Source of the DNA: Alphaproteobacteria bacterium
GTDB lineage: Bacteria; Pseudomonadota; Alphaproteobacteria; Caulobacterales; Parvularculaceae
Assembly (NCBI GenBank): GCA_030433215.1
Contig: JAUIMC010000012.1
Coordinates: 1-64,000, forward strand
Direction of reading: 5' to 3'
DNA: 64,000 nt
Part shown: one piece after another, positions 23,467 to 31,512 of the stretch
Layout of the letters: each line of letters starts with the position of its first letter
Position numbering within the stretch: position 1 is the stretch's first letter
Translations under genes and position numbers: made by a program
Notes under the pieces: generated by a model
The model's input: only the letters and a program-made list of their open reading frames with translations
What the model was told of the DNA's origin: nothing
Database searches by the model: none

Positions 23467-23495
23467 AAAAAGGGCGCGGGAGAGTACCCGCGCCC
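23467..23495 (-). terminator. Rho-independent terminator of the small heat-shock gene
   Basis: On the reverse strand GGGCGCGGG-TACTCT-CCCGCGCCC (9-bp perfect stem) is followed by TTTTT. It sits about 55 nt beyond the stop of the Hsp20 gene. Confidence 0.85.
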
Positions 23496-23549: not shown

Positions 23550-24011
23550 TTAAGCGGCGTCGGCGTCTTTCAGGACCTTCACATTACCGGCCTTGCCGCC
23601 CGCGATGGAAATCTTGCGCGGCTTTGCGGACTCGGGGATTTCCCGGCGCAGTTCAACATTCAAAAGGCCATTGACGAGTGAGGCGCCCGCGACTTTCACA
23701 TGCTCGGCGAGCTGGAAGCGGCGCTGGAAAGAGCGCCCGGCAATGCCCTGATAGAGGAAGGTGCGGTCTTCGCCTTCTTCCTTCTGGGAGCCGGTGACGG
23801 TCAGGGTGTTCTCATGCAGCTCAACGTCAAGCTCGTCTTCGGAGAAGCCGGCGACGGCGAGCGTGATGCGGTAATCATTTTCATCGAGGCGCTCGATATT
23901 ATAGGGCGGATAGCCGCCGGTTTCGGCTTTGCCCATGGAGTCGAGCAAATCGAAAACGCGGTCGAAACCGACCGTCGAGCGATAAAGGGGGGCAAGATCG
24001 AAAGTACGCAT
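23550..24011 (-). CDS. Small heat-shock protein (Hsp20/alpha-crystallin family)
   Basis: 153 residues. The N-terminal arm FDLAPLYRSTVGFDRVFDLL is that of IbpA-type proteins, the alpha-crystallin domain contains YPPYNIERLDENDYRITLAVAG and SFQRRFQLAEHVKV, and the C-terminal part LVNGLLNVELRREIPESAKP contains the conserved G-L-L segment. The C-terminal I-x-I anchor is seen as KISIAG. It holds unfolded proteins as an ATP-independent chaperone. Upstream lie a RpoH-like promoter and a candidate ROSE RNA thermometer that buries the AAGGAGG ribosome binding site; downstream is a strong terminator. It appears monocistronic. Confidence 0.93.
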   Translation of the reverse strand: MRTFDLAPLYRSTVGFDRVFDLLDSMGKAETGGYPPYNIERLDENDYRITLAVAGFSEDELDVELHENTLTVTGSQKEEGEDRTFLYQGIAGRSFQRRFQLAEHVKVAGASLVNGLLNVELRREIPESAKPRKISIAGGKAGNVKVLKDADAA

Positions 24012-24108
24012 TTCAAAGTCCTCCTTGCTTCAAGCGAGGGTTGATGTCGCGCCCGCATTCCGCCGTCAGGCCGGAAAGGCGCGGACGGAGCCGGTATGGC
24101 CTCCGTCA
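24012..24108 (-). promoter_or_regulatory. Candidate ROSE-type RNA thermometer in the hsp20 5'-UTR
   Basis: The reverse-strand leader is about 97 nt if transcription starts near 24108. Its 3' end (24020-24039) folds as CCTCGCTTG-AAG-CAAGGAGG, an eight-pair stem with one bulged G that covers the whole SD. The upper strand contains TCGCT, matching the ROSE U(U/C)GCU motif that pairs with AGGA around a bulged G. Further upstream, GTCCGCGCC and GGGCGCGAC can pair around an inner CCGGCCTGACGGCGG hairpin. ROSE elements are known in small heat-shock genes of alphaproteobacteria. At high temperature the hairpin would melt and open the RBS. Confidence 0.7.
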
Positions 24109-24114
24109 TGATCG

Positions 24115-24142
24115 AGATAGGCGCCCGGCGCCGGATTTCAAT
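24115..24142 (-). promoter_or_regulatory. RpoH (sigma32)-type promoter of hsp20
   Basis: On the reverse strand ATTG, a 17-nt spacer, then CCTATCT. The alphaproteobacterial RpoH consensus is CTTG-N17/18-CYTATNT, so only the first base of the -35 box departs. The predicted start is near 24108, giving the leader annotated as the RNA thermometer. Confidence 0.6.
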
Positions 24143-24231: not shown

Positions 24232-25134
24232 ATGATCACCAGGACAACCCTCTGGGCGGGACTCATCATGGCTTCGGCGGGGCTGGCGGCCTGCGGCGGC
24301 GAGCCTGAGACCGACAATCCGGCGGAAGAAGAAGCCGCCCCCATGGACGACGCGGCGCGGCTCGACGCCATCCTCGCCGGCGATCACCGCACGGACGAGG
24401 AGCGCGCCCGCGACCAGTATCGCCACCCTAAGGAAACGCTGCTCTTTTTCGGGCTCGAGCCGGACATGAGCGTGGTCGAGGTCTATCCCGGCGGCGGCTG
24501 GTACACCCAGGTGATCGCGCCCTATCTCGCCAAGGGCGACGGCAAGCTCTACGCCGCGAGCTTTAATCCGGGCGGCGCCAGCGAACGCGCCCTCGCCGCG
24601 CTCGATTCCTATCGCGAGACCTATGTGGAAAATCCCGAGCTTTACGGCGACATCGAAATGACCGCGCTCGGCGAGGGCGAGCATATCGCGCCCGAGGGCT
24701 CGGCGGACCTCGTGCTTACCTTCCGCAATATTCACAGCTTCATGGGCGCCGGCATGGCCGACTTCGCCTTCGAGGAATTCTATCGCGCGCTGAAGCCCGG
24801 CGGCGTTCTCGGCATTGTCGGACACCGCGCCGACGGCGCCGATCTGCCCGATGACGGCTCCACGGGCTATCTTTATACGGACGATGTCGTCGCCATGGCT
24901 GAAGCCGCCGGCTTCGACTTCGACGCGGCCTCGGAGATCAACGCCAACGCCAAGGATACGAAAGACCATCCTTTCGGCGTGTGGACCCTGCCGCCGGTGC
25001 GCCGTTCCTCCGCCGTGCGCGGCCAGGACAATCCGGGCTTCGACCGCGCCCACTACGATTCGATCGGCGAAAGCGACCGCTTCACCCTGAAATTCCGCAA
25101 GCCGATCGCCGCCGACGGGGCGCTTCTCGAATAA
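24232..25134 (+). CDS. Methyltransferase-like lipoprotein
   Basis: 300 residues. A lipoprotein signal peptide ends in MASAGLAACGG, so the product should be exported and membrane-anchored. The mature protein has a Rossmann methyltransferase-like layout: ETLLFFGLEPDMSVVEVYPG with GGGWYTQVIAPYLAKGDGKL (motif I), ADLVLTFRNIHSFMG, and ALKPGGVLGIVGHRADG. Export is odd for a SAM-dependent enzyme because SAM is cytoplasmic; the same fold-with-signal-peptide family occurs in other proteobacteria and has no settled function. It begins an operon, its TAA overlapping the ATG of the SCP2-like gene (TAATG). SD GGGAGCGAGA precedes the ATG. Confidence 0.8.
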   Translation: MITRTTLWAGLIMASAGLAACGGEPETDNPAEEEAAPMDDAARLDAILAGDHRTDEERARDQYRHPKETLLFFGLEPDMSVVEVYPGGGWYTQVIAPYLAKGDGKLYAASFNPGGASERALAALDSYRETYVENPELYGDIEMTALGEGEHIAPEGSADLVLTFRNIHSFMGAGMADFAFEEFYRALKPGGVLGIVGHRADGADLPDDGSTGYLYTDDVVAMAEAAGFDFDAASEINANAKDTKDHPFGVWTLPPVRRSSAVRGQDNPGFDRAHYDSIGESDRFTLKFRKPIAADGALLE

Positions 25135-29640: not shown

Positions 29641-29724
29641 GTAGCGCGATGGCGCTGCTGCCCAGTTCTTGGGCGTTTCCTCCCTAACGACTTCAGGCCG
29701 CGGTTCGTCCGCGGCCTTTTTTTT
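29641..29724 (+). ncRNA. Small regulatory RNA resembling the suhB/MmgR (alpha-r8) family
   Basis: An 80-odd-nt transcript is predicted from the promoter at 29606-29634 to the terminator at 29696-29724. It would fold as hairpin AGCGC-GATG-GCGCT, hairpin GCCCA-GTTCT-TGGGC, an unpaired GTTTCCTCCCTAACGACTTC, and a GC-rich terminator hairpin. The CCTCCC stretch could pair with ribosome binding sites. The length (MmgR of Sinorhizobium is about 77 nt) and the TTTCCTCCCT motif upstream of the terminator match my recollection of the suhB/MmgR family (Rfam suhB), which limits polyhydroxybutyrate granules in rhizobia. The family assignment is from memory of its pattern; the sRNA structure itself is well supported. 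Confidence 0.6.
29696..29724 (+). terminator. Rho-independent terminator of the sRNA
   Basis: GGCCGCGG-TTCGT-CCGCGGCC, an eight-pair perfect stem, followed by eight T residues. Confidence 0.88.
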
Positions 29725-29845
29725 CGCCGACAGGGAGGCTCAGTATAATTCATGGATTCTGGGCGCGCCACTGTTTTGGGTTGGGTCCAAGCAGACTTCT
29801 TAGCCTCGCCAGCAACGGTGCGGCTTTTCCCGTCTATTCGGCGGC

Positions 29846-31437: not shown

Positions 31438-31512
31438 GGGCGCGTAGCTCAGCGGGAGAGCACTACGTTGACATCGTAGGGGTCACTGGTTCAATCCCAG
31501 TCGCGCCCACCA
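31438..31512 (+). tRNA. tRNA-Val (anticodon GAC)
   Basis: A complete 75-nt cloverleaf. The acceptor stem is GGGCGCG/CGCGCCC, the D arm is AGCTCAGCGGGAGAGC, the anticodon arm is CTACG-TTGACAT-CGTAG with anticodon GAC, and the T arm contains GGTTCAATCCC. CCA is encoded at the 3' end. Anticodon GAC reads the valine codons GUC and GUU. Confidence 0.97.

What the first reader, a model, noticed from the sequence alone, without database searches (positions are those of the whole stretch)
24012..24142. Candidate ROSE RNA thermometer and RpoH promoter upstream of a small heat-shock gene
The leader hairpin CCTCGCTTG-AAG-CAAGGAGG covers the SD with the bulged-G U(U/C)GCU motif of ROSE elements, and the promoter is ATTG-N17-CCTATCT. 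Two control layers would be combined: sigma32 transcription and RNA-based translation control. The sequence matches ROSE in form, although the rest of the leader is only partly like known members.
Basis: partly seen in the sequence, partly recalled or inferred. Interest (0 to 1): 0.7.

Follow-up and report, generated by a model that had tools for sequence, protein, structure and literature searches.

The report
ROSE-type RNA thermometer, new lineage
The messenger RNA of this bacterium's only small heat-shock gene starts with a conserved three-hairpin leader that hides its ribosome-binding site and very probably works as a ROSE-type RNA thermometer; it is a sound new example of a well-known kind, behind an ordinary heat-shock promoter.

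Summary
On the minus strand, the genome's only Hsp20/IbpA gene (23550-24011) has a leader of about 95-100 nt that folds into three hairpins. The motif stands in 56/56 sHsp leaders of the family (9.5% of background windows). The three hairpins covary. A covariance model from 19 genus leaders recovers held-out leaders, has one significant site in this genome, and in 200 order-wide genomes hits only sHsp leaders (28/28). The RpoH-type promoter TTGAA-N15-CCTATCT is conserved in 47/56 relatives (reversed control 1). The SD-hairpin core CUCGCU/AGGAG equals that of E. coli ibpA, which scores as ROSE_2. Melting was not shown; predicted stability lies in the range of accepted ROSE hairpins. Verdict: a lineage-specific member of the broad ROSE class, predicted not proven; low to moderate interest.

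The parts
23550..24011 (-). small heat-shock protein gene, IbpA/Hsp20 family (153 aa)
   Evidence: PF00011 E=1.2e-21; NCBIfam IbpA model 194 bits, below its cut-off 212; 57% identity to E. coli IbpA over 136 aa; the only Hsp20 match in the genome
24115..24141 (-). RpoH-type promoter, TTGAA-N15-CCTATCT (-35 at 24141-24136, -10 at 24121-24115)
   Evidence: pattern in 47/56 family leaders, spacing 15 (39) or 16 (8), reversed control 1/56; RpoH1 consensus CTTGAA-N15-16-CCTATAT quoted in PMC4843759; rpoH gene in the genome (380 bits, cut-off 323)
24106..24110 (-). inferred transcription start (about 24106-24110)
   Evidence: inference from the -10 position; not mapped
24084..24107 (-). leader hairpin 1, GACGGAGGCC-AUACC-GGCUCCGUC
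   Evidence: conserved, compensatory pair changes
24048..24083 (-). leader hairpin 2 (outer CGCGCCU/GGGCGCG, inner UUCCG.CC/GGCGGAA)
24020..24039 (-). leader hairpin 3, the inferred thermosensor: CCUC-G-CUUG AAG CAAGGAGG, covers the SD
24033..24037 (-). ROSE core motif UCGCU with bulged G at 24035
   Evidence: U(U/C)GCU in 56/56 family leaders; alignments
24020..24026 (-). Shine-Dalgarno sequence AAGGAGG
23472..23495 (-). intrinsic terminator of the sHsp transcript
   Evidence: present in relatives

Best explanation
This is a ROSE-type RNA thermometer in the 5' leader of the only small heat-shock gene of a Parvularculaceae (Marinicaulis-like) alphaproteobacterium. Shown: an RpoH-type promoter followed by three conserved, covarying hairpins, the last of which pairs U(U/C)GCU with the SD and leaves a G bulged. 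Inferred: RpoH makes the mRNA on heat stress; at growth temperature hairpin 3 keeps ribosomes off; on heating hairpin 3 loosens while the GC-rich hairpins 1 and 2 stay folded, and IbpA is translated.
For: SD hairpin with the ROSE core. Motif in 56/56 family sHsp leaders and in 57/58 other sHsp leaders, against 9.5% background. Model R1, built from 19 genus leaders, finds leaders outside its training set that end at the sHsp start, e.g. L029 54.1, L112 49.4, L133 45.6 bits, and more weakly most distant alphaproteobacterial sHsp leaders, including Rfam-ROSE-positive L073 and L104. One significant site in the own genome (95.5 bits; next 14.2 bits, E about 5). In 200 order-wide genomes all 28 significant hits lie directly before an sHsp gene, four of them in another family. 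Covariation: on the MAFFT alignment 91% of cells pair (slid controls 43-50%) and 11 pairs change on both sides; on the model-fitted alignment of 52 leaders 93% and 27 of 30 pairs. In hairpin 3 the Y position runs C-G 24, U-G 18, U-A 10, and a lower-stem pair C-G 40, A-U 8. E. coli ibpA has the same core CUCGCU/AGGAG and scores ROSE_2 at 100 bits. Promoter conservation.
Against: No Rfam ROSE model reaches its cut-off in the window. The thermal response was not measured. Nearest-neighbour folding predicts little SD opening by 42 C (1.6% unpaired), but RF00435-positive leaders and E. coli ibpA show equally little predicted change, so this does not discriminate. The hairpin is the most stable of its family (-8.5 kcal/mol at 37 C; family median -5.0). 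Covariation inside hairpin 3 is limited because the SD arm is nearly invariant.
Confidence: 0.88

Rival explanations
1. The leader is mainly a binding site for the IbpA protein itself: free IbpA binds its own 5'UTR and represses translation, and aggregates titrate it away (aggregation sensor), with temperature sensing by the RNA secondary or in addition.
For: E. coli IbpA self-represses through its 5'UTR and needs R93, positive charges at 97/98 and an aromatic residue at 34 (PMC10474464); the window protein aligns without gaps and has Y34, R93, R97 and R98 (K98R keeps activity in E. coli). The same paper notes R93 and Y34 conserved in alphaproteobacterial IbpAs.
Against: Not exclusive of a thermometer; no binding shown for an alphaproteobacterial IbpA in what I read; the residues may be kept for other reasons.
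Confidence: 0.08
2. The SD hairpin is a fixed damper of translation or a by-product of mRNA-stabilising structure, and heat control is entirely by RpoH transcription.
For: RpoH promoter conservation is strong; predicted melting between 30 and 42 C is small; the single hairpin is only in the 5% tail of shuffles.
Against: The exact ROSE core is kept in 56/56 family leaders and 57/58 others, beyond what a damper needs; the five Pseudomonas leaders with this core that were tested all responded to temperature (PMC3669281).
Confidence: 0.03
3. The hairpin is a chance inverted repeat with no function.
For: Poor Rfam score; shuffle test of hairpin 3 alone marginal.
Against: Conservation, covariation and exclusive genomic placement.
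Confidence: 0.01

Closest known systems
ROSE element, rhizobial type (Rfam RF00435; B. japonicum hspA ROSE1)
   Same: Leader of an sHsp gene; several 5' hairpins followed by an SD hairpin with U(U/C)GCU, bulged G and AGGA
   Different: The window scores 14.6 of 45 bits, in the wrong register. Its SD hairpin has CC/GG lower pairs and a CUUG/CAAG upper stem; rhizobial ones read CAUAUUGCUC/GGAGGAUGUG.
ROSE_2 (RF01832), E. coli ibpA thermometer
   Same: Core CUCGCU/AGGAG identical in letters; 57% identical protein
   Different: Upstream hairpins differ in sequence and the ROSE_2 model does not report the window even at E 10.
Short ROSE-like thermometers of Pseudomonas ibpA (PMC3669281)
   Same: sigma32-dependent transcription plus a translational ROSE hairpin with flanking G-C pairs; hairpin energies -4.1 to -7.6 kcal/mol against -8.5 here
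   Different: Two hairpins in Pseudomonas, three here; relation of the 5' hairpins not tested.

Membership tests
ROSE-type RNA thermometers (broad class) | Lies in the 5' leader of a small heat-shock gene | tested here: met
   PF00011/IbpA gene starts 8 nt after the SD
ROSE-type RNA thermometers (broad class) | 3'-proximal hairpin sequesters the SD | tested here: met
   (prediction); conserved in relatives
ROSE-type RNA thermometers (broad class) | U(U/C)GCU opposite AGGA with a bulged G | tested here: met
   UCGCU 24037-24033, bulged G 24035; 56/56 family leaders have the motif
ROSE-type RNA thermometers (broad class) | Two to four hairpins in all | tested here: met
   three hairpins, covarying
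ROSE-type RNA thermometers (broad class) | SD hairpin opens on heating and translation rises | not testable with these tools
   folding at several temperatures does not discriminate even known ROSE leaders
Rfam RF00435 / RF01832 / RF02523 (curated ROSE models) | Score at or above the curated cut-off | tested here: not met
   RF00435 14.6 of 45 bits, the other two not reported at E 10; so it is not filed under these three models
RpoH (sigma32) promoter, alphaproteobacterial RpoH1 type | CTTGAA-N15-16-CCTATAT | tested here: met
   ATTGAA-N15-CCTATCT, one base off in each box; 47/56 relatives match the pattern searched
RpoH (sigma32) promoter, alphaproteobacterial RpoH1 type | Transcription depends on RpoH in vivo | not testable with these tools
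   an rpoH gene is present, nothing more

The most novel reading that the evidence does not exclude
Parvularculaceae and neighbouring families carry their own three-hairpin ROSE subclass, missed by all three Rfam ROSE models, with a distinct and strongly conserved first hairpin (GGAGGCC...GGCUCC) that may be the docking site for IbpA self-repression, so that RpoH, RNA melting and protein feedback all act on one leader.
Probability: 0.25. Interest if true: 0.4.

Novelty: new member of a known kind. Interest (0 to 1): 0.25.

Why it matters
It extends a well-studied heat-control device to a bacterial family where I found no report of it, shows that the curated Rfam models miss a whole lineage of ROSE elements, and supplies an alignment that could fill that gap. 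It does not change the understanding of RNA thermometers.

Tried and rejected
Rfam scans of the window and locus: only sub-threshold or unrelated hits (snoU83B, BcKCsr2; an RhlA thermometer hit at E 0.91 lies at 24359-24469 inside the neighbouring gene, chance). Predicted melting curves as a test of function: rejected as uninformative because accepted ROSE leaders look the same. An extra outer stem UCAA/UUGA around hairpin 3 in the window's own fold: not kept in the closest relatives, dropped. A 102-codon frame starting at 24109 near the inferred transcription start: its ATG is absent from the closest aligned relatives, taken as chance. Genome-wide promoter pattern as proof of an RpoH regulon: 17 matches against 6 for the backward pattern, and I did not recognise other heat-shock genes behind them, so it supports the promoter only weakly; cross-species conservation is the better test.

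Full report
What is there. On the minus strand the window holds an Hsp20/IbpA gene (23550-24011; PF00011 E 1.2e-21; 57% identical to E. coli IbpA), the only Hsp20 match in the genome. The nearest named relative is Marinicaulis flavus (95% amino acid identity), so the genome is a Parvularculaceae alphaproteobacterium. Upstream, read directly, are TTGAA-N15-CCTATCT (24141-24115) and then a leader of about 95-100 nt. The leader folds into three hairpins at -46.0 kcal/mol, z = -3.7, none of 200 dinucleotide shuffles as stable. Hairpin 3, CCUC-G-CUUG AAG CAAGGAGG (24039-24020), buries the SD AAGGAGG and presents UCGCU opposite AGGA with a bulged G: the U(U/C)GCU motif paired with the SD is what characterises ROSE elements (PMC3669281).

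The Rfam test. The whole-window scan at gathering thresholds gave no thermometer. A scan of only 181 bases gave RF00435 ROSE at 14.6 bits against a cut-off of 45, fitted to hairpins 1-2 and not to the SD hairpin. Family relatives L051, L121, L122 and L118 reach 28.6, 36.3, 30.0 and 28.3 bits on RF00435 at the sHsp start. So the window's leader belongs to a lineage that the models reach only weakly or not at all.

Comparative test. I collected sHsp leaders from the 62 genomes held for the family (56 usable leaders, including one second copy) and 80 named loci. U(U/C)GCU occurs in the last 45 nt of 56/56 family leaders and of 57/58 other loci (one of these, L056, is a family member); 9.5% of background 45-nt windows have it. 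Alignment A1 (33 leaders) keeps CCU-Y-GCU and AAGGAGG almost unchanged while much else varies. A covariance model, R1, from 19 leaders finds leaders not used to build it, ending at the start codon, with E-values from 1.8e-10 upward, and more weakly most sHsp leaders of Reyranella, Methylobacterium and others. In the own genome it has one significant site (95.5 bits; the next 14.2 bits). In 200 genomes of the order 28 have a significant hit; 24 lie at the sHsp genes already known, and the other four, in another family, also stand directly before an Hsp20 gene with CCUUGCU.

Covariation. On the MAFFT alignment (not fitted to structure) 91% of cells pair, against 43-50% when partners are slid, and 11 pairs change on both sides; RNAalifold on its own finds hairpins 1 and 3. 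On the model-fitted alignment of 52 sequences 27 of 30 pairs change on both sides; that alignment leans towards the structure by construction, but hairpin 3 has few gaps and still shows C-G/U-G/U-A at the ROSE Y position and C-G/A-U at a lower-stem pair. Hairpin 3 within the genus alone is almost invariant and says little by itself. Hairpin 3 of the window, tested alone with the SD held fixed, is only in the 5% tail of shuffles.

Promoter. A TTGAA/-10 pattern occurs in 47/56 family leaders, in 1 of 56 reversed leaders and in 0.8 of 56 on average after shuffling; 39 have spacing 15 and 8 have 16. The RpoH1 consensus CTTGAA-N15-16-CCTATAT is quoted in PMC4843759. The genome encodes RpoH. That RpoH uses this promoter is inference.

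Mechanism. Most likely RpoH supplies mRNA on heat stress and hairpin 3 holds translation down until it warms, as shown for Pseudomonas ibpA (PMC3669281). Opening with temperature is not shown here. Folding calculations predict little change between 30 and 42 C, but they predict equally little for accepted ROSE leaders, so they neither support nor refute. Hairpin 3 at 42 C (-7.5 kcal/mol) lies among the RF00435-positive ones (-6.9 to -8.8). A third layer is possible: the residues that E. coli IbpA needs to repress its own 5'UTR (Y34, R93, R97, K98 or R; PMC10474464) are all present; no test of binding was possible.

Novelty. ROSE elements upstream of sHsp genes are reported from more than 40 alpha- and gammaproteobacterial cases (PMC4166951), and the combination with sigma32 is known (PMC3669281). 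A search of the held papers for the genus or family names together with thermometer terms brought up only general thermometer papers with no mention of them among those listed. So this is a new member of a known kind.

Verdict. The finding is correct: a lineage-specific member of the ROSE class in the broad sense, not a member of the curated Rfam models as they stand. It is well supported, ordinary biology of modest interest.

Noticed in passing
23549-23472 (-), and the same place in many of L002-L026: The sHsp 3' UTR carries a recurrent pyrimidine-rich stretch (UCCCUCU ... CUUG) just before the terminator; Rfam suhB/mmgR gives sub-threshold hits (22-31 bits) there in L049, L039, L037, L082 and L032. 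Possibly a 3'-UTR-derived small RNA, or only a resemblance of terminators.
   Followed up: partly
29653-29732 (+): suhB/mmgR small RNA (RF00519), 63.6 bits, over the gathering cut-off of 41.
   Followed up: no
31438-31509 (+): tRNA gene (RF00005, 67.1 bits).
   Followed up: no
23801-24109 (-): A 102-codon frame overlaps the sHsp gene out of frame and starts next to the inferred transcription start; its ATG is absent from the closest aligned relatives, so probably chance.
   Followed up: partly
L136 (G039:C5:955500-956460): A second, divergent sHsp copy in one genome of the genus (G039) has an AUAUUGCU...AAGGAUAU leader that looks closer to the rhizobial ROSE form than the main copy does.
   Followed up: no
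24232-25134 (+): Divergent neighbour: a 300-aa protein with a lipoprotein-like start that matches no Pfam or NCBIfam model at E 0.001.
   Followed up: no
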